A stretch of 64,000 bases of DNA from positions 107,300,436-107,364,435 of the forward strand of contig NC_056001.1 of the NCBI RefSeq assembly GCF_018446385.1, read 5' to 3'. Source of the DNA: Zingiber officinale. Lineage: Eukaryota; Streptophyta; Magnoliopsida; Zingiberales; Zingiberaceae. The notes below the pieces were generated by a model. The model saw only the letters and a list, made by a program, of their open reading frames with translations. It was not told where the DNA came from and ran no database searches. Of the stretch, positions 6,301 through 34,550 are shown piece after piece (the stretch's first letter is position 1; the number at the start of each line of letters is the position of its first letter). Position numbers and translations under genes: made by a program.

Positions 6301-6329
6301 TACATATAAAGTAAGAGTTAGACCAAAGT

Positions 6330-7450: not shown

Positions 7451-7860
7451 GTTCATCAAGAAGGAGTTTATATGAAAAGCTTCCAAGTTGTGATGAGTCA
7501 TAAATATATCATTAAAGTAACCACGTACCTAAAATAAAACTTTCCAAAAACAAGCAACCTAAATAACTTAATACTTAGTTTTGGTCTGATTAGCTCATGT
7601 TTGACTAGAGTAGCTTCAGTTAGATCCACTAAGTCTAGTACATCAGGTAGAATACATATGATTTAACCTAAACATACATTCGACAGAGTTTTCTTAGTCT
7701 ACTATCATTCCAATTCATTCTAATACTATATTGTCAAGGTTGGTTAACCCTTTTTATTTCTAATCATTCTAATTTTTTAATTAAAACTAAGCATGCATAT
7801 TTAAAGTAGAAAATCAACCAATCATGCATTTAACATGCTAAAATCATTTTTCTATTGGCT

Positions 7861-8651
7861 CCCCTGAATTATAATATTGATATGGTCTATCTAAGTAATA
7901 GATTTGATCCTTAGGGACCCAATATTGGTTTGACTCATTTAAGTTAAGTAAACATACTTTGTTTGTCGTGTTAATCAAAGCATCATATTTCTAATATGAT
8001 GCTTGGACTTTATTTCTAATATTTTGACTAATCAAAGATAAGTATAACTTGTTTGTCGTGTTAGCTTTGTTCTTGAGTCTACATTTGGTGTACACAATTT
8101 GTTGGGGCCCAAGCATCATATTCAAATACTTGGAACCCAAATTAAACTTTTCTAACATTTTTTTGAGTCCTCTACTTGACATTTCAAGGTGAAATTTTCT
8201 TCCTAAAGTCTTGTAACTTAAGTTGAAATTCCCTCTTGAACATTGTTAATTGAGGGATTCAAGTTGACTTACTTCTTCAGGTGGTTAACTTTCTTAAGTA
8301 GCAAGTTAATTTGATCCTCAGATTTACTCAATATTTTAAACAAAAATTTAATTATTTTAAGCTTTTAAAATTTTGAAATGCAAATTACCTCATCTAGGTC
8401 TTCTAAAATGGATACAGACTCGTGACTTCTCTCGGACTCAGAATCAGACTCGAACTTGGATTCTTCGTTTCTTGTCATAAGTGCCAAGAGGCTGATTGCT
8501 TTGGTTCCTCCACATCTGACTCTTCCGAAGATGATTTGTCCCAAGTAGCCTTGAACATTTTTCTTCTTATTAAAGACTTGAGTTTGCCCTCTTTTAGGTT
8601 AGGGCACTCATGTTTGTATTGACACTTTTTGTTGCACTCGTAGCATGTTAC
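7861..8651 (-). pseudogene. Copia gag relic, C-terminal half with CCHC zinc knuckle
   Basis: The open frame on - covering 8475-8651 encodes C-Y-E-C-x8-C-P, a zinc knuckle with one ligand spacing disturbed (C-Q-Y-K-H-E-C in place of G-H-Y-K-H-E-C). An acidic segment (S-S-E-E-S-D-V-E-E) follows. The frame 7991-8182 and nearby broken frames resemble the coiled C-terminal part of Copia gag, and the W-V-P-K gag-pol junction is near 7900. The frame is broken on its N-terminal side at 8652 by a solo LTR, and gag resumes at 10474. Confidence 0.7.
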
Positions 8652-10473
8652 TGTAGGACCTTTGGCATGTGAGAGGGGAGGGTGAATCACGTGTATTTTT
8701 TTAAAAAATATATTTTTCGAACCTTAAAATAAAGTGAGTGCGTAGTGGAAAAATAAACTAAGTATGAAAAGAAAAGAAATATAAATAAAACACAATAATT
8801 TACTTGGTTTGGAGGCTTCAGTGTCTCCTACTCCAAGACCCAGGTCCCTTGGACCTATCGATGAGCAATCAATTAAATTCTCTACCGGTAAACTCCCGGC
8901 AGAGTAATCAAATACAAAGAGAATATAAGGTAAGTGTAACAACCTACACTTCCTTTAAGCAATAAAGTAAATGACTGGAATTAAGTTACCCAACACGATG
9001 ATGTGGAAGTTGAAGTGCTCGTGTGTTGGTGTCAGTCTGTCGACAGTGATCAGATGTAGCATAGTAATCGCGTGGTAGTAGTACAACAATATGGAAGTAG
9101 TCAGAGCAGTCGAATGATGAAAGAATCATGTATAAGTGTTGTTATCTGAGGATGCTGTTGGAGGCTCCTTTATAGGCATTTTCAGGCTTCTGAATCACCC
9201 CTGGGCACCTGGACTGAGGCCTATCTGATCCTGCTTTGTTGCTAAATTATCCATTTTCGGGCACCTGGACCACCTCCAGGCTCCTAGATTGCTAACATGA
9301 CTATACCTTGGTGAAGCTTTATCCGATAGCCTCTATCCATTCCTGGGCGTTTGGATCAGCTCAGAGCACCTAGACACTAACATACACCAGCCAATCGGAG
9401 CACACCAACTCAATTGTACACTTGGCTAGATTCGGGACCATACGGGCACTTGGACCCATTCTGAGTGCCCAAACCTCCGAGCGCATGGACCCTTCTCAAG
9501 CACCTGGAAGTCCTTTTTCTAGCTTTCAATTTCTTGCACGTAGCACAACAAGCATAATATTAAAAAATAAATGCTTTGACAGTATCGGGATTGTCTGATT
9601 CTGACTTCAGATTTTGTTGAAATCCTATGTCAGACCAATGTTTACTATTCTCTCAACTGGGAACGCGTCTTCACTGGATCTCTCATCTAGTTTCTTACCT
9701 GATCTTGCCTGCCAAACATAAAGTCCTCTAGATGTTTAGACTTTCTTTGATCTTGCTTAGTGTTTAATCAACCTGATCAACTAAGACTTTTCTACAACAC
9801 CAAGTTAGCACAATAGATATAAAATATTAAATTAAATCAGTGTTAATAGCTTTCAAGATTCGCTGGTCCGGTCGACCGTGCATGATTGGACGAAAACCAG
9901 CAGGTCACACATGCTTGGAGTTTACTCCTATAAGACTCCTCGTTACCTAGGGTTACCTCCCCCTAGGGTTGTCTAGTTTCACTCACCAAGACTTCCACCA
10001 CTTAGCTTCACTCACTAGGGTCTGACTTCACTCACCAGGATTTCCACCACCTAGTTTTACTCACTAGGGCCTAACTTCACTCACTAGGACTTCAACCACT
10101 TAGTTTCACTCACTAGGATCTGCCTTTACTCACTAGGATTTTCACCATCTAGCTTCACTCACTAAGCCTGGCTTCATTTACCAAGACTTCCCCTCGTCTA
10201 ACCTCCAGTTAGGACTAGTCACTTAGTAGACTTCTCACCAACCTAACTTCCAGTTAGAACTTACTCTTGTCTAACCTCCAGTTAGGACTAGTCACTTAGT
10301 AGATTTCTCATCTACCTAACATTCGATTAGGACTTACCCTTGCTAGTCATCTAGTCCTGACTAGAGTTTTCTCTTCCAAATATTAAGTCTTGTTTGGATT
10401 AACCCTTAGTTAACCTGACCAAATTTGAGTTCATTATCAAACATCAAAACCCTAGAGGCCGATTGCACCAACA
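8652..10473 (-). mobile_element. Solo LTR (Copia-type, 1822 bp) inside Copia gag
   Basis: On the minus strand it starts TGTTGGTGCAATCGGCC (10473) and ends ...GGTCCTACA (8652). The flanks are gttac (8647-8651) and attac (10474-10478), a 5-bp target duplication with one mismatch. Gag coding resumes on both sides, so the LTR cut an existing gag. A TATA-like GCCTATAAAGG on the minus strand lies at 9169-9179, and a cluster of cacctgg-type palindromes lies just upstream of it at 9190-9500. Repeated cttcactcactagg motifs fill 9960-10200. No internal genes are present, so recombination between two LTRs is the likely origin. Confidence 0.8.
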
Positions 10474-10986
10474 ATTACCTTATATTTGGTGTATTTGAGG
10501 TATTTTGTACTTTCTTCAAATTCCTTTTGGTGAACTTCTTTTTAGTAAACATCTTTCATACCATATTTATCATTTCCTCTTCATTGTTCGAATCTGAGTT
10601 TGACTCACTCTCATATTCTTGTTTCAGTCTAGACTTGGACTTAGCCTCCTTACTTTTGTTTTGACCTTCATACAAAGTTATACCTTTCTCAGTCTGACTA
10701 AAGTTAGTCTTCTCATATAATTCTAACTCGTAAAATAATTGTCTAATTTAATAAAGGAAAGATCTTTCGAAACCTTATAGGCATCTACCATAGATGTTCA
10801 CAGTACATTTCAAGGGAACGAGTTTAGAGCATACCTTATAATATCCTGATTTTTGTGTTGGTGGCCGATGACGTAGAGCTCATTGATGATGTCTTTAATT
10901 TTGTGTAGTTGAGTCATGGCTTCTCCATACAACATTTTAATATTGAATAACTGATTTAAAAGTAAATTTCCTTTAGTTACCTTTGA
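10474..10986 (-). pseudogene. Copia gag relic, middle part
   Basis: Minus-strand translation gives a lysine- and glutamate-rich stretch (S-K-S-R, then E-S-E-S-D-S-N-S-E-E) and then, at 10700-10980, the end of the UBN2/retrotran-gag domain. It includes segments like K-I-K-D-I-I-N-E-L and Q-L-F-N-I-K, with scattered stops. It joins in sense to the zinc knuckle at 8475-8651 across the solo LTR on its left, and to 13404-13592 across the solo LTR on its right. Confidence 0.65.
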
Positions 10987-11757
10987 TGTAACACCCCACC
11001 CTCCTCACTACTAGACTGTGAGGGCGGAGCGCTACTGGACTACTAACTTTACTTAACTATCCTTGTTCAATGTTGATAGAAATTCCTAAAACTCTCGGAG
11101 AACTCAAAACATACAATTAACTAGCAGCGGAAGACTAAATGACTCATCTAATACATTCTTAATAAATTCTTATGCTAGGTCCCAAGGCTTTTATAGTCCA
11201 GGCATCACACATCCATCCGCACCTCCTTGTCGCCTTCCTTTGCTATAACTTTTCCTTTTCTTTATCTGCAGTAAGAGGAAATGCAACTATAAGCAAAATT
11301 TGCTTAGTAAGCGCTATCTAACTCAGAAAATCACGAATGTGCATGTATACGAAAAGAACTAGAAACTATATGCTCTAAAAAGAAATAAAGCATAAACATA
11401 ACTGCTCATGTCAAACTAATAGCAAAGAAAAGCTAAGGAATCTACCCATATAATTCTAATAGCTAATCATGCTACTCATCTAATAGGTAAACATGAAAAC
11501 TACTCATCCACTAGATAAACATGGTAGAATAAAGAACTAACTTACTGATTTTCAGAACTATATGAAATTTATTTCATTTGTTCTAACTTAATCTTTAATA
11601 CTTTATGTTTATGTAAAACTCGTTTTACTTGTTCAAAAACTTACACTTATAATACTTCAAAATAATAATCAACTTCTTCTTGGGCCCGACAACTGTACTT
11701 ACTATGCGCGCATCCCTAACTAGACCCGAGATAGCTGGTCCAGAATCTAGTAGGGTT

Positions 11758-11957
11758 ACTAGGTTATCTAAACCTAGGGACCGATTATGGGAACCCAGCC
11801 CAAGGACTACTTAGAGTCCTGCATACTAGGTTATCTAAACCTAAGGACCGACTATGGGAGCCCAGCCCAAGGACTACTGAGAGTCCTACATACTAGGTTA
11901 TCTAAACCTAGGGACCGACTATGGGAGCCCAGCCCAAGGACTACTGAGAGTCCAGTA
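11758..11957 (+). repeat. 67-bp tandem repeat, three units
   Basis: Units start at 11758, 11825 and 11892 with actaggttatctaaaccta and run through cccagcccaaggactact. The period is exactly 67 in both steps. It lies inside the solo LTR 10987-13403. The + frame stays open across all three units because 67 is not a multiple of three and each frame happens to lack stops; I do not read it as a gene. Confidence 0.9.
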
Positions 11958-12189
11958 CAGTGCCACTGATAAAAGTAAAATACTTGTTATCTTTTAATAC
12001 TTCTAATATATAATGCCTCGGTTTTAACGAGCACCTTGTGTGCCAAAATCCCTAAAGTCTTGACTTTGGGATCTACTTAAGGCCTTGGCCTTTTTCTTTC
12101 TTTTCTTTATCTTTCTTATATTTGTTAATACATCTAATAAAAGAATGTTTTTTTTAAAAACTGAAATGTTTAAACAAATTCTAACTTTG

Positions 12190-12620
12190 AAATGCATAAA
12201 CAAAAATCTGCATACTATGCTAATCAAAATTCTGCATACTATTCTAATCAAGATTCTACATTCTATGCTACACTATTTCTGCATACTATGCAAACAAAAA
12301 AAATCTGCACTATAAGCTTAATTAAAATCTGCACTATAAGCCTACATGAAAATCTGCACTATAAGCTTAATTAAAATCTGTACTATAGGCTTAATTAAAA
12401 ATCTACACTATAAGCGCTTAATTAAAATCTGTAATATAAGCTCTACATAAAAATCTGCATTATAAGCTTAATTAAAATCTACACTATAGGCTTAATTAAA
12501 AATCTGCACTATAAGCGCTTAATTAAAATCTGCAATATAAGCTCTACATAAAAATCTGCATTATAAGCTTAATTAAAATCTGCACTATAGGCTTAATTAA
12601 AAATCTGCACTATAATCGCT
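12190..12620 (+). repeat. Array of short AT-rich repeats (ctgcactataagcttaatt type)
   Basis: Roughly 15 imperfect copies of a unit of about 25-30 bp, with the core aatctgcactataagctta. The left part has ctgcatactatgctaatca variants. A higher-order duplication is visible around 12395-12470 and 12505-12580. It lies inside the solo LTR 10987-13403. Confidence 0.8.
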
Positions 12621-12844
12621 TCTTATGCTTCGAATTCAAGAAGAACAAAGGTCCGAAACTACTCCTACTGCAGGTGAGAAGCACTTACCTTGCTTCTTGG
12701 ACTCACAACCGAACAAAAAGGGCTTCTAGGACCTTGGCCGGCTGCCGGAGATGATGCCCTTACTCCCTTTCATTTTCTGCCCGAGCTCTGCCATCGTACG
12801 CAGAAGAGAAGGAGAGAATGGTTTAAGTCATGGGAAAAAAGAGC

Positions 12845-13175
12845 ATCAACTTATTCCTTTTTATAACTTAATATTTCTGTTAACTCCTTAAATAAATTCG
12901 CTATCTTTTCTAAACAGACAAATCCAACATCAACTTATCCCTTTTATAATCCAATATTCTGTTAATTATCTTAAATAAATTCGCTACTTTTTCTAAACAA
13001 ACAAATCCAACATCAACTTATCCCTTTTATAATATTCTGTTAACTATCTTAAATAAATTCGCTACCTTTTCTAAACAAACAAATCCAAGATCAACTTATC
13101 CCTTTTATAATCCAATATTCTGTTAACTATCTTAAATAAATTCGCTATCTTTTCTAAACAGAAAAATTCGTTTGC
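12845..13175 (+). repeat. Tandem repeat of about 80 bp, four units
   Basis: Units start with atcaacttat at 12845, 12929, 13012 and 13090, each running through aataaattcgctat and ctaaacaaacaaatcc. Spacing is 84, 83 and 78 bp, so the units differ by small indels. It lies inside the solo LTR 10987-13403. Confidence 0.85.
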
Positions 13176-13403
13176 ACACCTGGTTAGCTGGGTTTTGACC
13201 AAGCCAAAAGTCGTGGGTTCAATTCTCGGCTTGGACATTTTTTGTCGAAACTTCCTTCGTTTAGTAAAAATACCAAACGACCTCCAAAAATTACATAAAA
13301 ATACTCTAAAAATTTCTAAAAATCCCTAGAATATTTCTATAGCATTTTTAAATATTTTTAAATTACTTTTAGGACTCTAATTGAGGAAATTTGGGGCGTT
13401 ACA

Positions 13404-13592
13404 TTTGAGTCATCGGTTCCTTCATGCAATTTGACTAGTCGGTCCTATAATTCTTTGGAGTTGTCGAATGGACCAACTCGATTGAGCTCCTCCTTGGTTA
13501 GGCCACATTGGAGTGTGTTCATCATCTTATAGTCGACTTGGGCCTTCATTTTCATTTCAGGACTCCACTTTTCCGAGTTTAGTCGTTCTCTA
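13404..13592 (-). pseudogene. Copia gag relic, UBN2 domain
   Basis: Minus-strand translation reads M-K-A-Q-V-D-Y-K-M-M-N-T-L-Q-C-G followed by L-T-K-E-E-L-N-R-V and L-V-K-L-H-E-G-T, typical of the UBN2/retrotran-gag domain of plant Copia gag. The right edge at 13592 is the insertion point of the gag-only element 13593-25097. The domain's N-terminal part resumes beyond it at 25098. Confidence 0.8.
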
Positions 13593-14573
13593 TGTAAGTA
13601 TCTCAAATAAGTTTTGATATGATTAACCAGGTTAAGTTAAGTCCTGCGGTATTTTGATCCTTGTGTCATAGTGTGCAGGAACTTAGGAACACAAGAAGTT
13701 GAGTGGAATATGCAGTGGGTGAGAAGCATGGCACGGGAATCGAGTCGACGAGTTCAGGTGCATCCAAGAGATAAGAAGCTGCGGAAGAGTACATCGGTGG
13801 AGTGAGAAGGGCACGCGTAGCACTTTCGAGAGACAAGAAGTCGAAACAGAAGGCTGCTCAAGGAGAAGGCTAGAGTTAGGTTCGGATGAGCTCAACTCTG
13901 GAAGGTTGGAGAATCACCCCAGGAACCAAAGAAGGAGCAAGCGACCGGAGAAGGAACCAATGGCCGGAGAAGGCACCGGACAGTCAACCTGAGGATGACT
14001 GCTTCGAGCGCCCGAACAAGATGGTCCGGGCACTCAGACCACCAAGGCACCTCATAGGCACCTCGTCACAGTGTCATTGCTGTGGATCACGTTTGGGTCC
14101 ACGTCAGCAACTATTCGAGTGCCTAGACATGGTCCAGGCGCCTGGACATGAAAAAAAATTCAATCTTGAATTCATTCTGTGGAGATAAAGTTTACCTCAT
14201 TAGGGCGCCCGGAGAGAATCTAGGCGCCTGGAATTGCCACCTCAGTAAATGGCTAGTTTTAACCATAGGACTATAAATAGAGCTCTAGTCTTTTTCATTG
14301 AGCACAACACTTACTGTAATCGAATTTCTATTCTATTTTTCAAGTTATGTACTTTTGTCAAAGGAGTCTGCTAGTTGAGCTTCACTTGCCTTAGATTTTC
14401 AATCTCACTGGTTGCCAACCAAGTAAACACTTTTGTCTTGTAGTTATTTTTATGTATTTTAGTTTTGTTTATTAAAAGTGTTTGTATTAACTTTAGTCAA
14501 AAGATTCGAAAAGGGTGTTTTTGTAATTTTTGGTAATTCACCCCTCCCTCTTGGCAATCACACAGGATCAACA
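13593..14573 (+). repeat. 5' LTR of gag-only element A
   Basis: It starts TGTAAGTATCTCAAA and ends GGATCAACA. It matches the 3' LTR starting at 16899 (TGTAAGTACCCC) across the aggaacttaggaacacaa segment, the ggcgcctgg-rich cluster, the TATA box and the cagttgagcttcacttgcc end. A TATA box ctataaatag is at 14271-14280. Short ggcgcc-type palindromes cluster at about 14005-14235, just upstream. Confidence 0.85.
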
Positions 14574-14575
14574 AT

Positions 14576-14587
14576 TGGTTTCAGAGC
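14576..14587 (+). other. Primer binding site of gag-only element A
   Basis: TGGTTTCAGAGC starts two bases after the LTR end ...caaca. It differs by one base from TGGTATCAGAGC, the usual plant PBS complementary to initiator Met tRNA. It fixes the element's orientation as +. Confidence 0.8.
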
Positions 14588-14619
14588 AAGAACACTTTAA
14601 AAGGACTAACCGCCGATCA

Positions 14620-15961
14620 AAGTAATGAAATCGACGACCAAACCAAGCCTCAACCCGCCAAAGTTTAAGAGAGAGTTCGTACACTAGAAACATTGAATGG
14701 AGGCATTTCTAAGAACATATTTTGAAATTCTTTTAATAATAAAGTATGATTTTATAGTTCCCAAGGATCAACAAGGAGAAGAAAAAGAAGAAATTTTTGG
14801 ATAAAGAATGAACAAAGTGACTTCGTAGCCAACAATAAAGCGGAATACCACTTGCTAAGTGTATTACTGCCTCAAGAAGTCAACCACATCGGAAGCTACA
14901 CCTTGGCCAAAGAACTCTGGGAGAAATTCCTAGAGCTCCATGAAGGAACATCCGAAGCAAAGCTTGCTTCATGGGATATTCTTCGGAGTAAGTTAACAAA
15001 CCTCCGCTTAGAAAAAGGTGAGACAGTGGCTCAACTACACATAAAGATCAAGGAGCTGATCACCGGACTAATCAATCTCAGTGAAACGGTAATCAACCAG
15101 GACTCGGTCTGCTATGCACTCTATGTCTTTCCCAGAACTCCAGAGTAAACCTCAATCATAGATGTCTACTACATCTCTAAGGACTTGGAGCTAAGTACCT
15201 TAGAAGAACTTTTTTTCAACATTAAAATTACATGAATCTAGATGTGCAAGTACAATAAAGGAGTCAAACCAGAACTTGGCACTGAGAGCCAAAAAGAAAG
15301 AAAAACCCAAGTCAGACTCAGACCTTGATGCAGACCAAGAAGCGTTTATGGTAAGAAAATTTTAAAAAAAAAATCTACCGGATTTAAAGAAATACAGACC
15401 AAGAAAAATCCAAGGAGCAAGCGAAAGATTCGATTCTACAATTGTTAGAAAGAAGAATACATGAAGGATGACTGCTTGAAGCTCAAGAAGGAGAAAGAAA
15501 AAGGGCCAAAGCGAAACAAGTACAAAAATCCCAAGGCCACTTGGGATGAAAGTTTGTTATCTGAATCCAAGATAGAAGCCTATATTGGACTAGCACTGAT
15601 GGCTAGTCATGAAGAAGCAAGCAACTCAAAAGCTAGCATCGATGAAGGGGGAGCTACATCTAAAGAAAGCAGCTGTGAAGAAGAAGAATCCAGCTTCAGA
15701 TCAAATTTGGTAAGTGAGGTATGTCTTCTACCACCTAACCAGTTATATTATGGTATAAAATCAATGTTCAAATCTTTATGTAAGTTTAAAACTAAGAATA
15801 TAAATTTGAAAATAATTTTAGCTAAAGCATGCCCACTAGAAGAAGTTGATAAAGTTAAAACTAAAAATACAAAATTTAAAGAACAAATAGAAAATTTTAA
15901 AAATTCTGCATGTTCAAATTTTGCTACTTCAAATTTAAGAAAATATCAAGGGATAAATTGA
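14620..15961 (+). pseudogene. Broken gag of element A
   Basis: The frame 14852-15148 has the UBN2-type gag domain: A-K-E-L-W-E-K-F-L-E-L-H-E-G-T near its start, then L-R-L-E-K-G-E-T-V-A-Q-L-H-I-K-I-K-E-L. The frame 15461-15961 continues with the zinc-knuckle C-terminal half (E-E-Y-M-K-D-D-C), lysine-rich and acidic segments and a coiled tail, ending at a stop (15959-15961). The frames are separated by stops and frameshifts, and the knuckle lacks a clear G-H. It is therefore non-functional gag. Confidence 0.75.
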
Positions 15962-16898
15962 TATTATAGATTTTATAAAGGTCAAATTAGAAAAGTAATA
16001 AGAAAATATATTCCAATAAAATTTTGATTAATATAGTAGGTAGGGAACAACCTATATTAGGTTCTAAAATCATGCTTAGGTTAAATCTTTATGCATATTT
16101 TAATTTTAATTTATTTTAATATTTTCATTGCATGCTTAAATTTTTTTAACTTTTTAAAATAAATTGTTTCATATCCTTTCCATTTGAAATCAATTATATC
16201 TTAATTTTTTCCATAAAAATTATTTTATTACTTATCCGTAGGAAAATTTTCAAAATTTACCCTTAATGAATTTCTACGATTTTTTAGAAAAATTTTAATT
16301 TTTAATATTAAAAATTCATAAAAAATAAATTTTTGGAAATCATTTTTTTTCAGATATAATTTTTATTTTATATATTTAAAAAAAGTTACAAGATTTTTAG
16401 AGTTCAAAATCTATTTTTAATTTTTTTTAGAAAATTACATCTCTCTTGATAAAATAATTTATAATTCTGATATCAATCTTGTTTACTCATAAATATTTTA
16501 TCACAATTCTAGATTATTGTATTTAATAGTATGAAAAAAAAATTAGAATTTTTTAAATAATAAAAATATTTTTAAAATTATTGTTTCAAAAACTAGTTTT
16601 TAAGTCATGAAAATTCAGATTTTTGAAAAATAATTCCCAGAATTTTTCTAAGTGTTAGTCACTATTTATGTATCCCTTAGAATTTTTCTAAATTTATTTC
16701 AATATTTACTCCTATTTTTAATATGATTAAAGGGGGAGAAATTGGAGGGGTAAAGTTATGACTTATTTGTAAAATATTAGTTGAACTTAAATTGCTTTAT
16801 TTATGTCAATTTATTTTTGTTAAATAAATTTTTATGTCTATTTTACCATAACTTTAACTGGGATTGATGCATATTAAAAATATTAAAAAGGGGAAGAT
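15962..16898 (+). other. AT-rich non-coding interior and PPT of element A
   Basis: There is no reading frame of note. The stretch has long AT runs and a purine tract aaagggggagaaattgg at about 16729-16745. A second purine tract, aaaaaggggaagatt (16885-16899), immediately precedes the 3' LTR and is the likely polypurine tract. A related AT-rich region, inverted, occurs at 60080-61050 next to another LTR of this family. Confidence 0.6.
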
Positions 16899-17650
16899 TG
16901 TAAGTACCCCAGGTAAGTTTTGATGTAATCAACCAGATTAAATTAGGTCCTTTGGTATTTTGATCTTTATGTCTAAATATGCAGGAACTTAGGAACACAA
17001 AAAGTCGAGCGAAAGACATAGTGGATGAGAAGGATGGCATGAGAATCGAGTCAACGGGCTCAAGTGCATCCGAGGGACGAGAAGCTGCGGAAGAGTACAT
17101 CGGTGGATTGAGAAGGACGCACATGGCGCTTCTGAGGGATGAGAAGCTGGAGCGAAAGACTGCTCGAGGGGAAGGCCAGAGTTGGATCCGGGTAAGCTTA
17201 ACTCTGGAAGGTCAGAGGATCACCCAAGGGGATCAGAGAAGGAGCTAATAATCGAAGAAGGCGTCGGACAATCAACATGAGGCTGACTACTCTAGGCTCC
17301 CAGACAAGATGGTTCGAACGCCCGAACCATCAAGGCACCTCATAGGTGCCTCGTCGTAGTGTCATTGTTGTGGATCACCTTCAGGTCCAGGTCAGCAACG
17401 ATCCAAGAGCCCGGACATGGTCTAGGTGCCCAAACATAAAAAAAATAATTCAATCTCGAAGTCATTGCATGAAGATAAAGTTTGCCTCACTGGGGGAGCT
17501 CGAAGAGGGTCCAGGCGTCTAGAGTTGCCACATCAGCAAATTGTTAGTTTCGACTAGAGAGCTATAAATAGATCACTGGTCTTCTTCATTGAACACAATA
17601 CTTATTGTAATCAAATTTCTATTTTGTTCTTCAAGTTCAGCACTTTCAAC
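16899..17650 (+). repeat. 3' LTR of element A, left part
   Basis: It starts TGTAAGTACCCCAGG after the PPT and carries a TATA box gctataaata at 17561-17570. It is interrupted after tcaac (17646-17650), the target duplication of the nested element. It resumes at 24838 and ends at 25097. Confidence 0.85.
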
Positions 17651-18198
17651 TGTTGGGACCGAAAAGTAACTAGAGGGGGGGGGGTGAATAGCTCTTCGCG
17701 TGCTCGTCGTCGGTGTTGCTCGTTTCTTCAGAGATATGCAGCGGAAATATAAGAAACAAAAGCATACAATGCTAACAAGGATGGTTTACTTGGTATCCAC
17801 CTCACAAGAGGTGACTAGTCCAAGGATCCACACCTACTCACGCACCCTGTGAAATCGCTCCTTTTCAGTAACTACTGAAGGCGGAGAAGCCCTACAAACC
17901 TCACAATACAAGAAGAAAGCAAGGGAAACAAATACAATAGATATCTTACAAGATATGGAATGAAAACCCTAACCCTAGCTTTCTTCTTCTTACTTTTGAT
18001 CCTCCTCTTGACTTGGGAAACCTCCAAGAACCTTCAATAACTGGCGATCTGAGCTTGAGAGAAGTGTGGAGAAGTCGCTGTGTTGATCTGAGATGAAATC
18101 GTGAAGTTCTACCGCAGCCATCGCACGCCTGCAGCTCAAATGCGACGCAACGGTCGGATCCCGATCGATTCGAAAGCTCCCAATCGATCGGGGAGGCT

Positions 18199-18459
18199 TT
18201 GGATCGATCCACGGATCGATCCAGAGCGCCTCTGTGCTCTTGGAAAACACCTGGATCTATCCACGGATCGATCCAGCGCTTATCGCGTGAACCAGTAGCG
18301 TCCCAATCGATCGGCTGATCTATTGGGACCTCTGGATCGATCCACTGATCGATCCAGAGGTTCTCTGTTCGCTGGGAAAGGCCTGGATCGATCCACTGAT
18401 CGATCCAGAGCTTTCTGTTCGCTGGGGAAAAGCCTGGATCGATCCACTGATCGATCCAG
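18199..18459. repeat. Array of gatcgatc inverted repeats in LTR U3
   Basis: Three perfect units, starting at 18332, 18383 and 18434 (51 bp apart), each consist of ctggatcgatc, spacer cact, and gatcgatccag. Two more degenerate units start at about 18199 and 18251. A fourth variant, ccaatcgatcggctgatctattgg, is at 18303. The same array is in the other LTR at about 23912-24162, one unit shorter. Related gatcgatc motifs recur in the element's interior at about 19975-20150. Confidence 0.9.
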
Positions 18460-18499
18460 CTCTTGGTTTTTGCCCAAAACCAAGTCCCAAGCCTCTCAA

Positions 18500-19112
18500 A
18501 CTAACATTCGGTCAACCTTGACCTGTTGGCACATCATGCCTAGCATCTGGTCACTCTCTTGACCTTCCAGGTCTCCCCACCAAGTGTCCGGTCAATCCCT
18601 TTGACCCACTTGGACTTTTCTCTTTGTGCCAAGTATCCGGTCACTCCCTTGACCTACTTGAACTTCCACCAGATGTCTGGTCAACCTTGACCCATCTGGA
18701 TTTCCTCATACCAAGTATCCAGTCAATCCTTTGGCCTACTTGGACTTCCCAACACCAGATGTCCGATCATCCTTGATCCATCTGGATTTTCCCTGTGCCT
18801 GGCTTCACTCGCCAGGACTTCCAATCTGCCTAGCTTCACTCACCAGGACTTTCTTCTTCCTGGCTTCACTCACCAGGTCTTTCACCTAGCTTCACTCACT
18901 AGGATTTTCACCTGGCTTCACTCATCAGGATTTTTTTCTGCTTGGCTTCACTCACCAGGACTTTCTTCTGCCTGACATCCCAGTTAGGACTTCCCAGTCA
19001 AGTATCCGGTCATCCTTGACCTACTTGACTCTTCTTCAATCAACCTTGTATTGTCAAACATCGAAACCCAAACCAAGACTCAAGCTTGATCAACTAGGTC
19101 AACCTTGACCTG
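18500..19112. promoter_or_regulatory. Cluster of W-box cores in LTR U3 of element B
   Basis: About a dozen TTGACC or TTGACT cores occur on the two strands, several as tight inverted pairs such as GGTCAA-cc-TTGACC at 18510-18523 and near 18678-18691 and 19099-19112. TTGAC[C/T] is the known core of the W-box bound by WRKY transcription factors. The position, at the 5' side of U3 on the element's sense strand, is where enhancers of plant LTRs lie. WRKY binding is inferred, not shown. Confidence 0.55.
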
Positions 19113-19130
19113 AGGGATGTTGCACCAACA

Positions 19131-21488
19131 ATCTCCCCCTTTTTGATATTTGACAATACTAACACTATCACTTACAATACCACATGTAAGTTAGGCTAAT
19201 CTCATAGCCTAAATATTCTTCATGCCACTAGGTAATGAATACATTAAGTTAAGCCCTTCATTTTCCCCCTAAGAGGGCAAACTCCCTCTAGGTAATGAAA
19301 GCCTAACTTACTCCCTTTCATTCTCCCCCTATTGGCACACATCAAACCATGCCCCATTTTTGGGCACACATCAACAAATTCACTTGTTGAAAACTCTCCC
19401 CCTGAAGAGTTGCTCATTGTTGTTCACAACTTCACTCGTTGTGATCAACACGATAATGAAGGTCTCATACCCTTCATTATCCTTAACCCTACATTCTCCC
19501 CCAATGTAGGCAAGTGCCCATCCTTGAGCATTATCCACTTGAAACCACTTGAATAATGAGGATATCCACTCCCCATTAAAGTTCAAACGCTCAACCTTGA
19601 GCATGTTCTTAACGGAAGGTTAACCACCTTCCAAAGTTCATTAAAAATAATTTTCATGTCTTTAAAGAGTCCCTCCCCCTAAAGACATGGTGGTAACTTC
19701 TGTTATTGCACCAACAATGACTTGGAATCCCTAAAACTTTAGGAAACCTAATTTTAGAAGTTTTGAGGTTCAAATATTTAAAATTTGAAACAAACCTCAA
19801 CCTAAACTTCAACTTAGCCTTCCTTAACCAATCCATCCTTGTTTTTTACACGAAAACACCTTTTTATGCATACAAATGTATTTTCAAGGGATTGGAATGG
19901 TTACCTAGACTAAAATAGGTTCAAAGATGCTGAAATCAGACCTTCCAAGCCAAAATCAGCATCTTCGATTGATTAGAGTTGGGTTCCAATCGATTGAACC
20001 CTGCTGAATCGATCCACTGATCGATTCAGTCTTCTTGGATCGATCGGCTGATCGATCCAGCGAGCTTCTGCTCGCGAGAAATACCTTCTTAATCGATTGG
20101 CTGATCGATTGAGGCACTCCAATCGATCCACCGATCGATTGAAGGCCTGAAATTGCTGAAATTCAATTTCAGCCAATTTCAGAAACCCCTAGAAAATTCT
20201 ACAAAATTCCAAAAATCATAAAAATTTGTGTAGACATTATTTAGGATATAATTTATCATGAAAAAATAGTTTTCTAGGAAAATATATCATATTTTCAAAG
20301 ATTGACATAAACTTGAGAACTCGCAAAAACTTTAGTGTTTTCTTCAAGTTTGTGTCTAACTATTCAATGGTGATTACTATCAAAAGATAGCCTTCACCAA
20401 GGTTTTTCAAAATTATTTTAAAAACATTTTCAAAACCAATATCCCACCATATTCCTTGGGCTTAATGCTCATTACTCGTACATTAGCTTTCCCAATGATG
20501 GGAAAACACATAACTATATGTTTTGATGAACTTAAAACTCAAAAGAATGCACTAAATCAACATCTTGAATTTTGTTCATCATCCTAACATCTCACTTGTA
20601 TCTAATGTGCACTAAAACACATACAAGTCATCTTATTGGTCTTTGTGAGATATAAAGTTTGGTTTTTACCCTAATCTAGGGATCATGCATATCTATCTAG
20701 GCATTTTGTGGATATTGAACATCCACTTAGGATGTTACTTGTTAATACCACTTGTTGACAACACTTGTTGATAAATGCCATTTGTCCTTGCTTTTAAGGA
20801 ATTAAACATAATGCATGATAATGTTATGGCATACATCAAAATGAAATAGCTTTCAAAAGAAAGATTCCTATAATTACATGATGTATGTATGACATGACAT
20901 GGTATTTTTATATTTTTCATAATAAGTCATGAATGAAAAAATAGACATGATGTCATGGCATATGATGGGCAAATAATCATGGCAAGGTTTAGCATAAATA
21001 AAATATACCTAGATTACCTATCTAAGTATCCTTAACCACTTAGCTAACTCAAAATATACAACTTGTTTTAACTTAAAACGTTAAACCTAGATTGCCCTAA
21101 ATGCTTCAAAGAAATGCCAAAACCTAAATTGACATTTATATTTCTCTTGATTTGTTTATGCCACTTAAAAATTAAGCATATCCTTAAATGTTGACATATT
21201 CCATTTTTCCTCAAGAATAATCACATAAATCAAGGCCCAGATTGCCTTAAATTTCTAAGAGAATACCAAAATCCCAACTTGGTATTTCTCTAGGTTTTCC
21301 CAATTTATGCCATTTTAAGATAAAATCAATTTCCACCATTAGGCACATTTTACTCTTTCAAGGAGTAAATAATAATTCCATTTCATTTTCAAAGGTTAAC
21401 AAAAACCTTGAAAATGCTCCTTGAGTGTCAATTTCCTCAAAGTTGGGTTAACTACCCTTCTAATCGGAGTTGACACTCTCTAACCCAT
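19131..21488. other. Non-coding interior of element B between gag and 3' LTR
   Basis: Only short frames occur. It begins with the PPT (19131-19144) and pyrimidine-rich tctccccct tracts at 19270-19500 that would be purine-rich on the sense strand. It includes gatcgatc palindromes at 19975-20150. In an autonomous Copia element protease, integrase and reverse transcriptase would lie here; none of their signatures was seen. Confidence 0.7.
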
Positions 21489-23228
21489 TTATGGGGTAGA
21501 GAAGATGCTCCTAGGAATCCAACACCTATTGGTGCTCCTTGGATGCTCTAGGTACTCACTAGGGATAACTTCCCTAGATACCTTCCTAGTGACCTTGTTG
21601 GGCTTCTTAGAAGCCTTGGTCACATTTTCTAGGTCAATTCTAGGGATAGCCTCCCTTGTGACCTTGTTAGTGACTTTCTTAGACTTCTTAGAAGTCTTAG
21701 TCACTTTGGTTGCAAAGATACTTCTAGGGATATCTTCCCTTGTATCCTTGACTTGACCTCTAGACTTAGGGTTTGTTCCATACCTATATGGAACCCTATG
21801 ATAACTAGGCACATCCTTTTTAGCTTTGGGTTTGTATCCCAACCCTCTATGGTCATTGGATGACTCTTGTAGTACTCCTAAACCTAGGTTTTGCTCATTT
21901 TGCCCTTTTAGGATATTTTCCATCCTTTTTAGGGTCTTTTCCATTTTATCAAGTCTTAACCTCAAGACTTGATTTTCTTTCCATAAATCCCTAGATTTTG
22001 GTTTTCTATTTAATCCTTGAGCGTTTTTATTTCTAGGTATATAGTTATTGATCTTAGTGTTCTTGCCTAATTTTTTATCTACATTCCTAGCCCTAGGTTG
22101 AGAGGTTTTAGCATGAAAAGCTACATGATTTTCTTTAACTTTATCATGCCTCCTATTTTCATGGTAAATAGCATTAAAATGATATAGGTTAGTACTTGCA
22201 TGCTCTTTACCATAATTCAAAGGGGTAGGCTCAATAAAAGATACCTTTCTTTTTACCTTGGAGGCTCCCCCTTGAATTGAGCTTCCTCCACGAGCCTTGA
22301 CCACCTTCTTCCCCTTGGGGCATTGACTTCGATAATGCCCCTTTTGATTGCACAAGAAACACACAATGTGCTCCTTGCTCTTCTTTGTTCCGGGGATGGT
22401 CTCCTTGGGCTTCTCCTTGCCCTTTTGTGTCACTTGACCCTTCTTCTTGGCCAAGTTGGGACACTTGCTCTTGTAGTGCCCACTTTCCCTACACTCAAAA
22501 CATATTATATGATTTTTATTTTTAATTGAACCATTTATACCTTCTTGTGTAGGGATGACACTTGCTCCTCCATTTGATATTTCTTGAATTTTGGAGGTGG
22601 CACCATCTTCTTCTTCTTCACTTGACCCAGATGTGGAGGCCTCTTCTTGCTCCGGGTTCATTGATCTACACTCCCCCTCAATCCTAGAGGTGGAGGCTTC
22701 ATCATCTTGTACATGGAACAAGGAGTATGCTCCCTCCTTGTTCTCTTCATTGCACTCCCTTGAAGATGAAGCTTCTTCTTGGACTTCCTCTTCTTCGGAA
22801 GTTGAGCATCTCTCAACTTCGGAGTCCTCCTCTTGGTCTTGCTCCAATGAGTCGCCCTCTTTGGATTCTTCTTGATTCGGTAAAGTGGAGGGGATCTCAT
22901 GAATTGATGCTAACTTGCTCCAAAGCTCCTTGGCATCCTTGAATTCCCCAACTTGAGCCAAAATATTGCTTGGCAATAAGTTGACCAAAAGCTTGGTCAC
23001 TTTATCGTTTGCCTTGCTCCTTTGAACTTGCTCTTGACTCCATTTGCTTTTCTTGAGAGGCTTGCCCTTGGAGTTTGTTGGAGCTTCAAATCCTTCCATG
23101 AGAGCAAACCATTGCTCTATCTCCATCATAAGAAAATTTTTGATTCTTGATTTCCAAGAATCGAAGCTTGTGGATGTGTATGGTGGAGCCACCCTTGTGT
23201 CAAATCCAAGTCCATCTTGGAATTGCAT
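21489..23228 (-). CDS. Gag protein of element B, intact
   Basis: One uninterrupted frame of 579 residues from the first in-frame Met after the PBS (23228). The frame is also open upstream, but only through the PBS into the LTR, so the longer version starting at 23513 (a GTG) is not used. The N-terminal 110 residues form a UBN2/retrotran-gag-type domain (S-F-D-S-W-K-S-R-I, later K-L-L-V-N-L-L-P-S and K-E-L-W-S-K-L). An acidic, serine-rich stretch follows. Two CCHC zinc knuckles come next, C-F-E-C-x4-GHY-x4-CP and C-F-L-C-x4-GHY-x4-CP. Then there is a basic region, a short coiled coil around L-R-L-R-L-D-K-M-E-K-T-L-K, and a basic tail ending in W-I-P-R shortly before the stop. In Copia polyproteins a W-V-P-K-like motif marks the gag-protease boundary, so the frame stops just where pol would begin. 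Gag packages element RNA; here it is the only protein retained. Confidence 0.88.
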   Translation of the reverse strand: MQFQDGLGFDTRVAPPYTSTSFDSWKSRIKNFLMMEIEQWFALMEGFEAPTNSKGKPLKKSKWSQEQVQRSKANDKVTKLLVNLLPSNILAQVGEFKDAKELWSKLASIHEIPSTLPNQEESKEGDSLEQDQEEDSEVERCSTSEEEEVQEEASSSRECNEENKEGAYSLFHVQDDEASTSRIEGECRSMNPEQEEASTSGSSEEEEDGATSKIQEISNGGASVIPTQEGINGSIKNKNHIICFECRESGHYKSKCPNLAKKKGQVTQKGKEKPKETIPGTKKSKEHIVCFLCNQKGHYRSQCPKGKKVVKARGGSSIQGGASKVKRKVSFIEPTPLNYGKEHASTNLYHFNAIYHENRRHDKVKENHVAFHAKTSQPRARNVDKKLGKNTKINNYIPRNKNAQGLNRKPKSRDLWKENQVLRLRLDKMEKTLKRMENILKGQNEQNLGLGVLQESSNDHRGLGYKPKAKKDVPSYHRVPYRYGTNPKSRGQVKDTREDIPRSIFATKVTKTSKKSKKVTNKVTREAIPRIDLENVTKASKKPNKVTRKVSREVIPSEYLEHPRSTNRCWIPRSIFSTP

Positions 23229-23347
23229 CTTGAAGTTGAGCTTCTTGAAATCTTTGACTTTTGATGAATTTGCTTCAACTTCTTCACCTCTAGCTTTGCT
23301 TGTTTTGTTTTCCCCTTCCGGCGATGATTCCGGTGAAGAGCAACCTT

Positions 23348-23359
23348 GCTCTGATACCA
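23348..23359 (-). other. Primer binding site of element B
   Basis: TGGTATCAGAGC on the minus strand is an exact match to the usual plant initiator-Met-tRNA PBS. It is two bases downstream of the 5' LTR end. Confidence 0.92.
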
Positions 23360-23361
23360 CT

Positions 23362-24832
23362 TGTTGGGACCGAAAAGTAGCTAGAGGGGGGGGTGAATAG
23401 CTCTTCGCGTGCTCGTCGTCGGTGTTGCTCGTTTCTTCAGAGATATGTAGCGAAATATAAGAAATAAAAGCATACAACGCTAACAAGGATGGTTTACTTG
23501 GTATCCACCTCACAAGAGGTGACTAGTCCAAGGATCCACACCTACTCACGCACCCTCCACTATGAAATCACTCCTTTTCAGTAACTACTGAAGGCGGAGA
23601 AGCCCTACAACCCTCACAATACAAGAAGAAAGCAAGGGAAACAAATACAATAGATATCTTACAAGATATGGAATGAAAACCCTAACCCTAGCTTTCTTCT
23701 TCTTACTTTTGATCCGCCTCTTGACTTGGGAAACCTCCAAGAACCTTCAATAACTGGCGATCTGAGCTTGAGAGAAGTGTGGAGAAGTCGCTGTATTGAT
23801 CTGAGATGAAATCGTGAAGTTCTACCGCAGCCATCGCAAGCCTGCAGCTCAAATACGACGCAACGGTCGGATCCCGATCGATTCGAAAGCTCCCAATCGA
23901 TCGGGGAGGCTTTGGATCGATCCACGGATCGATCCAGAGCGCCTCTGTGCTATGAGAAAATGCCTGGATCGATCCACGGATCGATCCAACGCTTATCGCG
24001 CGAACCAGTAGCGTCCCAATCGATCGGCTGATCGATTGGGACCTCTGGATCGATCTACTGATCGATCCAGAGGCTCTCTGTTCGCTGGGAAAGGCCTGGA
24101 TCGATCCAGAGGCTTTCTGTTCGCTGGGGAAAAGTCTGGATCGATCCACTGATCGATCCAGCTCTTGGTTTTTGCCCAAAACCAAGTCCCAAGCCTCTCA
24201 AACCAACATTCGGTCAACCTTGACCTGTTTGCACATCATGCCTAGCATCTGGTCACTCCCTTGACCTGCCAGGTCTCCCCACCAAATGTCCGGTCAATCC
24301 CTTTGACCCACTTGGACTTTTCTCTTTGTGCCAAGTATCTGGTCACTCCCTTGACCTACTTGGACTTCCACCAGATGTCTGGTCAACCTTGACCCATCTG
24401 GATTTCCTCATGCCAAGTATCCAGTCAATCCTTTGACCTACTTGGACTTCCCAACACCAGATGTCCGATCATCCTTGATCCATCTGGATTTTCCCTGTGC
24501 CTGGCTTCACTCACCAGGACTTCCAATCTGCCTAGCTTCACTCACCAGGACTTTCTTCTGCCTGGCTTCACTCACCAGGTCTTTCACCTAGCTTCACTCA
24601 CTAGGATTTTCATCTGGCTTCACTCACCAGGATTTTCTTCTGCCTGGCTTCACTCACCAGGACTTTCTTCTGCCTGACATCCCAGTTAGGACTTCCCAGT
24701 CAAGTATCCGGTCATCCTTGACCTACTTGACTCTTCTTCAATCAACCTTGTATTGTCAAACATCGAAACCCAAACCAAGACTCAAGCTTGGTCAACTAGG
24801 TCAACCTTGACCTGAGGGATGTTGCACCAACA
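23362..24832 (-). repeat. 5' LTR of element B (1471 bp)
   Basis: It is a near-identical direct repeat of 17651-19130 with scattered substitutions, a few inserted bases near 23555, and loss of one palindrome half-unit near 24097. It ends ...gttgcaccaaca at 24832 followed by the target duplication tcaac. Confidence 0.9.
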
Positions 24833-24837
24833 TCAAC

Positions 24838-25097
24838 GTCCTATACGAGGCTTCTCCGCCTTCGACTTGTGTTGAAGAAGGAGTCTGCTAGTTGAGCTTC
24901 ACTTGCCTTGGATTAACAACCTCCTCGGTTGCAAACCAAGTAAACACTTTTGTCTCGTACTTATTTTTATGCATTTTAGTTTCATTTATTAAAAGTGTTT
25001 ATATTAACATTAGTCGAAAGTTCCGAGAAGTGTATTTTTTTTCGTAATTTCAGGCAATTCATCATGCCCCCCCCCAGTCGACCGCACAGGACCAACA
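24838..25097 (+). repeat. 3' LTR of element A, right part
   Basis: It resumes after the second tcaac copy with sequence matching 14350-14573: gagtctgctagttgagcttc, aagtaaacacttttgtc, attaaaagtgttt. It ends aggaccaaca at 25097, followed by ctcta, the duplication of element A. Confidence 0.85.
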
Positions 25098-33433: not shown

Positions 33434-34550
33434 AAGGACGACAGTTGACTACACAAGATCAACCTCGCTCTGATACCAACTAACGCATCGGATAACTATC
33501 AAATTTGTTAATTCGCACATGAATAAAGGAAGTGACTTCTAATCTTTGTTGATTTGAAAGAAGAATATTAGGACAAAAGAAAACTCATTGTTTCATAAGG
33601 AGATGACGGCTAGAAATAGTATATCCCAAAACTATCTCAAAACATTAAATATGATACTTATATAGACAGAATACTATAATCGTAAGATAAAAATATCAAA
33701 AATAATTTAAATACCTAAAATATAAAAATTATTAAAAATAGTAAAAAAAATATTCAAAAGTTCTTAAAAAGACCTAAATGGACTCTCCTATAATAATATA
33801 GATCTTTAAATATTACACATCTAAATTCTGAATCAAAAGTTATGATTTATAAAAGATTACTCTATCGAATTCGTATAGTCATGGAAGAGGGAGAAGAGCA
33901 ACTAATTGACATCATCGCCGATGACGGCGTGGGCATCTCTGAGGCCGCCGTCTTCATATTTAGTGATTAGTTCAACTCCGGTGGCAATTACTCGCGTGCT
34001 TTTTGTTTATTTTGTGTAATTATCTATGTTTATTATCAAATTTATTATAGGAGCATACGTATTATAAAAAATAATTAATGTATGTGATCATAAATTGATA
34101 TTACAAAACAAATGTAACTCTAAGTTAATCTAACTAATCGGACAAATCAAGAAAACGCCATTTTGTTTTAAACATGATTAGGAGTAGGACTGGTTTTAAG
34201 GACCACAGGAGACGAGACGAGGCGAGGCGAGGCGAGGCGAGTGGGGAGATGTTTCCTTTCATCATCAATGCTTTCCAAGTTGGGTCCGAACCATCGATTC
34301 ACCCGCGGATTGTGAGCCAAATCGGTCCAGGAATAAAACTTTGACCCGGCCGAATCTCGAACCGGTTCGGTTGACCGAGTGAGACATTGGTTTACATAAC
34401 GAAGCCGACGGAGGGGGAGGCATCGCTGAGCTGCGGCCGCGCGCATTCGCCGGGAGCCAGAGCGTCACGCTCCGCCGCCACCTCTCGTCCGATAACCTCC
34501 TCCTCGATTTACCTCGAATCGGTGACCTGCAATCGTCAGAACAGCGATTG
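33434..34550. other. Intergenic DNA upstream of the WD40 gene
   Basis: It contains gctctgatacca (about 33469-33480, a PBS-like string without an adjacent clear LTR edge), AT-rich DNA, a 29-codon open frame at 33881-33970, and a (GGCGA)n microsatellite at about 34211-34240. From about 34300 base composition rises sharply in GC towards the WD40 gene, as expected for its promoter and 5' leader. No obvious TATA box was identified. Confidence 0.5.

What the first reader, a model, noticed from the sequence alone, without database searches (positions are those of the whole stretch)
17651..24832. Complete gag-only retrotransposon with an intact gag and no pol
Seen: paired LTRs, exact PBS, PPT, a perfect TSD TCAAC, and an uninterrupted 579-residue gag with two CCHC knuckles. 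The gag stops right after W-I-P-R, where an autonomous Copia would enter protease. Known: such TR-GAG elements exist but few are catalogued. Inference: an intact gag in an element whose LTRs have already diverged suggests gag is kept by selection and the element may act in trans on, or parasitise, an autonomous partner.
Basis: partly seen in the sequence, partly recalled or inferred. Interest (0 to 1): 0.75.

Follow-up and report, generated by a model that had tools for sequence, protein, structure and literature searches.

The report
Gag-only Sirevirus-type retrotransposon in ginger
A jumping element of what appears to be the ginger genome carries only a shortened capsid-type gene (gag) and none of the copying enzymes, belongs to an abundant group whose gag is kept by natural selection, and so probably rides on the enzymes of complete relatives.

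Summary
The window's assembly matches the published 3.1-Gb ginger genome. The element is a non-autonomous Sirevirus derivative. In all 17 copies delimited, gag abuts a noncoding linker, with no pol between. A sister family (B) has the same layout. A 22-base PPT/LTR junction occurs 8,519 times in the diploid assembly; of the first 20, 8 have this gag, 9 the sister gag, 3 are uninformative, 0 pol. Gag evolves under purifying selection (10 open copies: dN/dS 0.295, 95% 0.24-0.36; capsid N-half 0.126); the linker shows no codon rhythm. A pol-bearing Sirevirus-type element of the same genome shares the PPT/attachment core, PBS and poly-C signal, and its gag stops at the matching place. One correction: this gag is not complete. 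It lacks the C-terminal half of the capsid domain and has two zinc knuckles. Best reading: the element makes a selected Gag that loads its own RNA and borrows Pol, probably by co-assembly with helper Gag (inferred). TR-GAG elements and barley RLC_Giselle are precedents; the shortened, selected Gag shared by two families is the new variant.

The parts
17651..24832 (-). whole gag-only element (family A)
   Evidence: LTR pair, TSD
17646..17650 (.). TSD copy TCAAC
24833..24837 (.). TSD copy TCAAC
23362..24832 (-). 5' LTR (1471 bp), starts TGTTGGTGCAACA, ends TCCCAACA
17651..19130 (-). 3' LTR (1480 bp)
23380..23402 (-). poly-C signal near LTR end (GCTATTCACCCCCCCCTCTAGC)
   Evidence: sequence; motif described as integrase signal in PMC2829016; similar in H and B
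23348..23359 (-). PBS TGGTATCAGAGC (Met-tRNA)
   Evidence: junction CA/AGTGG/TATCAGAGC as in PMC2829016
21489..23228 (-). gag ORF, 579 codons plus stop
   Evidence: dN/dS
22899..23228 (-). capsid N-terminal half (aa 1-110), strongest constraint
   Evidence: Pfam Retrotran_gag_2 positions 11-74 of 172 only, below cut-off; alignment to the gag of pol-bearing H; dN/dS 0.126
22461..22502 (-). zinc knuckle 1 (aa 243-256)
   Evidence: Pfam
22320..22361 (-). zinc knuckle 2 (aa 290-303)
   Evidence: Pfam
21492..21953 (-). gag tail with Leu-rich (coiled-coil-like) stretch and C-terminal WIPR/WVPR motif
   Evidence: alignment with four other gag tails; coiled coil by eye, no predictor run
19131..21488 (-). 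noncoding linker in place of pol
   Evidence: collinear blocks with family B linker
19133..19140 (-). terminal PPT octamer AGGGGGAG, then AT/TG
19323..19330 (-). upstream PPT octamer AGGGGGAG
19396..19403 (-). upstream PPT octamer AGGGGGAG
19673..19680 (-). upstream PPT octamer AGGGGGAG
19145..19159 (-). left arm of inverted repeat around PPT/LTR junction
   Evidence: 14 of 15 bases pair with 19048-19062; 0 of 100 shuffles reach the score
19048..19062 (-). right arm of that inverted repeat, inside the 3' LTR
23915..24158 (-). cluster of GATCGATC palindromes in the 5' LTR (9 copies; 9 in the 3' LTR; 4 GATCGATY in the linker; 1 GATCGATC in the rest of the window)

Best explanation
It is one copy of an abundant non-autonomous family derived from a Sirevirus-type (Ty1/copia) element by loss of pol directly after the natural gag stop (supported by comparison with H and with sister family B). 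The family kept PBS, PPTs, attachment sites and LTR-end signals that match those of a pol-bearing Sirevirus-type element (H) in the same genome (shown), and encodes a Gag that purifying selection has maintained while copies diverged (shown on a sample). Inferred steps: the RNA is transcribed from the LTR; its own Gag binds it in cis through two zinc knuckles; because this Gag has only the N-terminal half of the capsid domain, it enters particles by co-assembling with Gag and Gag-Pol of an autonomous Sirevirus; helper RT/RNase H and integrase then copy and insert it. Cis preference of Gag for its own RNA is what would let selection act on a gag-only element.
For: Fixed layout: 16 of 17 delimited copies have an internal region of 4196-4311 bp, L026 has 4835; gag abuts the linker within 4 bases in 17 of 17 (and the window). 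20 haphazard junction sites: 8 A gag, 9 B gag, 0 pol, 3 uninformative. 75 scored protein hits: open frames 580-677 aa, no gag-pol fusion. Selection: 55 pairs dN/dS 0.205-0.433; 10 open copies 0.295, capsid N-half 0.126; codon positions 0.098/0.089/0.189 in gag of 16 copies, no such rhythm in the linker; sister family B also periodic, 9 of 9 fragments fully open. Helper: in H, pol follows in frame after a TAG at the matching gag end; H has the same 23-base PPT/attachment core, the same 16 bases from the PBS on, and a poly-C signal that differs by one C; H-type junction 2,746 places against 8,519 for the gag-only type. Precedents: PMC8704663 (a TR-GAG transposing in Arabidopsis ddm1) and PMC5738225 (RLC_Giselle/RLC_Inga), passages read.
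Against: No RNA, protein or new-insertion data. H was the pol-bearing element that could be found; most of its LTR does not match (about 145 bp at 73% plus short ends), its 3' pol was not read, and whether all H-type junctions carry pol is unknown. 12 of 17 delimited A copies have broken gag. The last 80 residues of gag are not distinguishable from neutral (0.44, 0.17-1.37). Low correlation of gag and linker distances (0.20 and -0.07) shows mosaic copies, so gag and the pol loss may not share one history. With 0 of 20 (17 informative) junctions, pol-bearing members up to about 14-16% are not excluded. All letters come from one genome. The co-assembly step has no direct support; the model of the capsid half is of modest confidence (mean pLDDT 66.9) and its best fold matches, Drosophila copia capsids, are not significant (E 0.35 and 0.81).
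Confidence: 0.75

Rival explanations
1. Ordinary deletion derivative: this copy lost pol, and gag is open only because the insertion is young. No selection on gag.
For: LTR K2P 0.029 (about 1.1 My at 1.3e-8, the rate used in PMC8342452); 12 of 17 delimited copies have broken gag.
Against: All delimited copies share the layout and the sister family too; dN/dS well below 1 in all 55 pairs; neutral survival of this frame about 0.04, a rough figure.
Confidence: 0.07
2. The shortened Gag acts as an interfering factor (as the truncated Ty1 Gag does) that limits helper Sireviruses; the element profits only indirectly.
For: Gag lacks the capsid C-terminal half but keeps the N-half under the strongest constraint; a trans-dominant Ty1 Gag is mentioned in a paper seen in passages.
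Against: Interference does not explain why gag is selected within the element's own lineage; thousands of copies were made, so helpers were not shut down.
Confidence: 0.15
3. The Gag forms particles by itself, with the acidic part or the coiled-coil-like tail replacing the missing capsid half, and imports only Pol.
For: Two families keep the same shortened architecture; gag is constrained in most of its parts.
Against: I recall no capsid that assembles without this half; Pol of such elements normally enters as Gag-Pol, which requires Gag-Gag contacts (recalled).
Confidence: 0.2
4. gag is conserved as RNA (packaging or replication signal), not as protein.
For: Parts of the linker and the junctions are conserved as DNA, though the copies were picked by similarity there.
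Against: Third codon positions change about twice as fast as first and second in gag, with no such rhythm in the linker.
Confidence: 0.03

Closest known systems
[quoted passage not shown] Arabidopsis AT5TE33540 of ATCOPIA63
   Same: two LTRs, one ORF for Gag, no pol; AT5TE33540 encodes a 562-aa GAG and transposed in ddm1, with a full-coding relative as likely helper (PMC8704663, passages)
   Different: here Gag lacks half of the capsid domain and has two knuckles; thousands of junction copies; selection on gag measured; no close full-coding relative found in the searches made
RLC_Giselle of barley, thought to depend on RLC_Inga
   Same: Copia family with a potentially intact gag and without RT and integrase; similarity to the partner highest around the PBS (PMC5738225, passages); an element named Inga is listed among Sireviruses in PMC2829016
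   Different: Giselle is described as closely related to Inga; capsid truncation and selection on gag are not mentioned in the passages read
Sirevirus-type pol-bearing element H of the same genome (L063-L065)
   Same: PPT/attachment core, PBS junction, poly-C signal, inverted repeat at the PPT, gag with zinc knuckle and WVPK tail
   Different: A has no pol; its gag lost the capsid C-half and has two knuckles; LTR bodies mostly unlike
BARE2 of barley (mentioned in passages)
   Same: non-autonomous Copia element relying on a partner
   Different: opposite division of labour: BARE2 lacks Gag and borrows it, this element makes Gag and lacks Pol

Membership tests
TR-GAG | two LTRs with TSD | tested here: met
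TR-GAG | single ORF encoding Gag | tested here: met
TR-GAG | no pol | tested here: met
TR-GAG | mobilised in trans by an autonomous element | not testable with these tools
   cis signals match H; no activity data
Sirevirus (PMC2829016, parts 1-3 of 7 read) | several AGGGGGAG PPTs near the 3' LTR | tested here: met
   4 exact octamers in the linker, all within 0.55 kb of the LTR; also 2 in gag, 0 in the 5' LTR
Sirevirus | terminal PPT followed by AT/TG | tested here: met
   AGGGGGAG AT/TG
Sirevirus | 5' junction CA/A(T or G)TGG/TATCAGAGC | tested here: met
   CA/AGTGG/TATCAGAGC
Sirevirus | poly-C integrase signal near LTR end | tested here: met
   GCTATTCACCCCCCCCTCTAGC
Sirevirus | inverted repeat around PPT/LTR junction, left arm bordering the PPT | tested here: met
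   14 of 15 bases pair, 0 of 100 shuffles; right arm 68 bp inside the LTR, farther than the average 28 in the paper
Sirevirus | palindromic LTR repeats with CGG-CCG core (13 of 21 elements in the paper have the repeats) | tested here: inconclusive
   9 GATCGATC per LTR, without CGG-CCG core (Tnd-1 in the paper also lacks it), later in the LTR than described
Sirevirus | TATA box in the LTR (all but two of 21 elements in the paper) | tested here: not met
   no CTATAWAW, TATAAA, TATATA or TATAAG in the 5' LTR
Sirevirus | RT/RNase H phylogeny | not testable with these tools
   element has no pol; hence called a Sirevirus derivative, not a member
Sirevirus | large gag with central CCHC and downstream coiled coil | tested here: inconclusive
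   579 aa, two CCHC; capsid C-half missing; coiled coil judged by eye

The most novel reading that the evidence does not exclude
A retroelement satellite with its own dedicated loading protein: a Gag that has shed the capsid C-half, is under purifying selection, and serves only to bind its RNA and dock it into particles of an autonomous Sirevirus, in a gag-only lineage old enough to have split into two families (A and B) whose junction outnumbers that of a pol-bearing relative (H) about three to one.
Probability: 0.35. Interest if true: 0.72.

Novelty: new variant of a known kind. Interest (0 to 1): 0.52.

Why it matters
Gag-only elements are usually listed as defective leftovers. Here a gag-only lineage has kept its protein under selection, changed its architecture, split into families and come to outnumber, by junction count, a pol-bearing relative. 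That makes an open question testable: do gag-only elements supply Gag for themselves in cis, for others in trans, or hijack helper particles? It also bears on annotation: the ginger genome paper retained as intact only LTR elements with complete Gag-Pol (PMC8342452, passage), which would leave these families out.

Tried and rejected
Finding relatives outside the genome: one scan of viral contigs with the gag gave 4 pattern matches, none a relative. Finding the partner through RVT_2 and Retrotran_gag_2: of the 151 RVT_2 rows four loci were read (L038-L041), three with gag and pol in one open frame and one with pol only in the stretch, none with a Sirevirus-type gag tail; the lineage of the other rows was not determined. 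H came from the gag_pre-integrs search, where by eye 18 of 150 rows have a 1038-aa open frame; one of these (C1:74382625) has an H-type junction 5.3 kb downstream on the same strand.

Considered and rejected: linker as hidden gene (no codon rhythm; no Pfam); linker as degraded pol; gag conserved as RNA only; the LTR-like sequence ending at 3709 in the window as part of a pol-bearing partner (it abuts sequence that by eye looks like RNase H, without a PPT, so it looks like an insertion).

Left out of counts: of the 20 loci, L012, L014, L018 and L023 (interrupted or partial) and further partial copies in L019, L020, L022 and L028 were not used; 18 of the 40 hits were not read. LTR distances of L009, L011, L013, L021, L022 and L027 are not used for dating because one LTR was not whole in the stretch (L009 0.135 and L021 0.553 are the largest). 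L026 was left out of the 16-copy alignment for its length. L027 and L032 are the same copy; it stops at codon 567 and was but not; L036 is broken and was in neither. The 20 loci were picked by similarity to 19000-19600, so linker conservation near that end is biased; the 20 junction samples are simply the first 20 listed. The count of 49 of 75 gag hits without stops was made by eye and favours intact copies. The B copy (L042/L020) has no in-frame ATG at the usual start and is broken there. The other LTR of the outer element does not show a clean empty site: no TCAAC there and 39 columns missing beside the joint. A genome-wide count of the gag-stop/linker junction was asked for and never answered. 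The fold search was weak; the PDB sequence search matched only the zinc-knuckle region.
Full report
What is there. The element at 17651-24832 lies on the minus strand. Its LTRs (5' 23362-24832, 3' 17651-19130) are 95.96% identical, K2P 0.0293 over 1466 aligned bases, about 1.1 million years at 1.3e-8, the rate used in the ginger paper PMC8342452 (passages). The TSD is TCAAC. A gag frame of 579 codons runs from 23228 to 21489; the 2358 bases between its stop and the 3' LTR look noncoding: 20 open pieces of at least 40 aa, none with a Pfam match, and no match to pol proteins or pieces of three other elements. The element sits in the LTR of another element: 13593-14573 matches 16899-17646 and 24878-25097. 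Joining the flanks gives an LTR that aligns at 79% (762 of 963), but the other LTR lacks 39 columns beside the joint and the TCAAC, so the empty site is only approximate.

Genome. The window is G000:C16:107300436-107364435 of a 3,090,333,446-base assembly. C2 and C15 have the lengths of the largest scaffold and the N50 scaffold (194.39 and 141.27 Mb) given for the haplotype-resolved ginger genome in PMC8342452, so I take it to be Zingiber officinale; 211 contigs are held against 219 scaffolds reported.

Copies. Twenty 10-kb stretches around linker hits were read, of the 40 matches listed, one of them the window itself. Seventeen elements including the window could be delimited. In 16 the internal region is 4196-4311 bp; L026 has 4835. 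Eleven have both outer ends in hand, and 10 of 11 have a perfect 5-bp TSD (L010 differs in one base); LTR distances of these eleven are 0.0084-0.0528. Gag is open to the family stop in 5 of 17. In all 17, gag abuts the linker within 4 bases (and the window), and the same holds for five further open copies, L030, L031, L033-L035. A protein search scored 75 of 136,107 first-look candidates: all match over residues 1 or 2 to 579, 86-100% identical, open frames 580-677 aa, 49 of 75 without a stop by my count. So no gag-pol fusion stands among those 75.

How common. The exact 22-base PPT/LTR junction occurs 4246 + 4273 times, reversed control 0. From the first 20 listed sites I read 300 bases lying 2350-2650 bp upstream: 8 hold gag of this family (A), 9 hold gag of a sister family (B), 1 an A LTR, 1 an inverted B-LTR-like stretch (69%), 1 another repeat; none holds recognised pol. 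With 0 of 20, or 0 of 17 informative, up to about 14-16% pol-bearing elements cannot be excluded.

Sister family B. L020:7359-10000 and L042 show an element with the same plan. Its gag is 39% identical over 391 aa, has the same short capsid region, two knuckles and a YWVPRS end, and its linker matches that of A in collinear blocks from the second base after the stop to the LTR. The simplest reading is one loss of pol before A and B split. A third family, C (L037, and the decayed outer element in this window), also has gag followed by PPT and LTR without pol, but with a capsid C-half and one knuckle. Fragments of further gags (L013, L024, L025) were seen but not delimited.

Selection. Among 11 gag copies (10 open, one with a stop at codon 567) 55 pairs give dN/dS 0.205-0.433, median 0.294; the highest pair has a bootstrap range of 0.282-0.658. 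For the 10 fully open copies the summed value is 0.295 (0.24-0.356). By part: residues 1-110, the capsid N-half, 0.126 (0.079-0.184); 111-285, acidic part and knuckle 1, 0.356 (0.25-0.512); 286-352, with knuckle 2, 0.243 (0.132-0.445); 353-425, 0.397 (0.249-0.64); tail 426-579, 0.450 (0.246-0.808); the last 80 residues, 0.442 (0.174-1.368), cannot be told from neutral. Over 16 copies, intact or not, codon positions differ at 0.098, 0.089 and 0.189, whereas none of six linker segments shows such a doubling. Nine B fragments of 300 bp are all open and, with the L042 copy, show 0.095, 0.122, 0.195. Distances in gag and linker hardly correlate (0.20 and -0.07), so copies are mosaics; recombination between co-packaged RNAs is a likely cause (inference).

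A pol-bearing relative. L063-L065 with L064 (C15:16765400-16768700), element H, has a gag with knuckle and a tail ending AWVPKNCVFYVV, a TAG, and then pol in the same frame, with the Pol_BBD domain of Pfam; open frames of 1038 aa recur in the gag_pre-integrs search. Only the start of pol was read. Its PPT/attachment core ATCAAAAAGGGGGAGATTGTTGG and its PBS stretch TGGTATCAGAGCAAGG are those of A, and its poly-C signal differs by one C, though most of the LTR and of gag do not match. The gag-only families stop at the matching place of the gag tail. The H-type junction occurs 1401 + 1345 times; whether all of these carry pol is unknown.

Gag anatomy. Aligned with H and C, the gags of A and B run together as far as AKELW..L..HE and then lack the capsid C-half that follows there. 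Pfam agrees: profile positions 11-74 of 172 in A, below the cut-off, against 27-134 in the H piece and 41-166 in C. A single-sequence model of residues 1-125 has five helices at modest confidence; its two best PDB matches are Drosophila copia capsids, but not significant.

What it is called. It meets the structural definition of TR-GAG. It has the Sirevirus cis motifs of PMC2829016 (parts 1-3 of 7 read) except a TATA box, and its palindromes lack the usual core; with no RT it can only be called a Sirevirus derivative. Precedents: a TR-GAG that moved in Arabidopsis (PMC8704663), gag-only elements expressed in sunflower (PMC9784723, PMC7730604) and the barley pair RLC_Giselle/RLC_Inga (PMC5738225), all seen as passages. 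Chaparro 2015, which these papers cite for TR-GAG, was not held. Searches for selection on gag of such elements and for non-autonomous Sireviruses with gag listed no paper whose title or abstract start reports a capsid-truncated, selected gag-only lineage; apart from PMC5738225 and PMC8704663, only listings of those results were seen, and one search showed 15 of 23.

Verdict. Real, confirmed, a known kind with a new twist. The absence of pol, the retained cis signals and the selection on Gag are shown on the samples named; self-loading in cis and docking in helper particles are inferred.

Noticed in passing
window 13593-14573, 14574-16898, 16899-17650, 24838-25097: The host of the insertion is itself a decayed element of family C (as in L037) with remains of a gag that has the capsid C-half, and no pol seen between gag and a PPT-like AGGGGGAG (16732).
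   Followed up: partly
window 4247-13582 (minus): Remains of a pol-bearing Sirevirus-type element: gag, protease-region, integrase and RT pieces in order, interrupted; beside it, LTR-like sequence ending at 3709 has the CTTCACTCACTAGGAC-type repeats of the family A LTR.
   Followed up: partly
L063:1-1501: In the pol-bearing element H, gag and pol are in one frame separated by a single TAG; open frames of exactly 1038 aa recur (18 of 150 rows, by eye), suggesting that the stop is conserved and perhaps read through.
   Followed up: no
G000:C15:16756591-16773991: Three gag_pre-integrs hits spaced about 8.6 kb apart; in L064 one LTR lies between a PPT and a PBS, as in a tandem array of H elements sharing LTRs.
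   Followed up: partly
window 34383-35852 (+): Open frame of 490 aa with WD40 repeats, probably a host gene.
   Followed up: no
window 856-2384 and 61735-63335: Direct repeats of 80-90% identity about 60 kb apart, possibly LTRs of one heavily interrupted element.
   Followed up: no
16 family A copies, gag against linker: Pairwise distances of gag and linker are almost uncorrelated: mosaic copies.
   Followed up: partly
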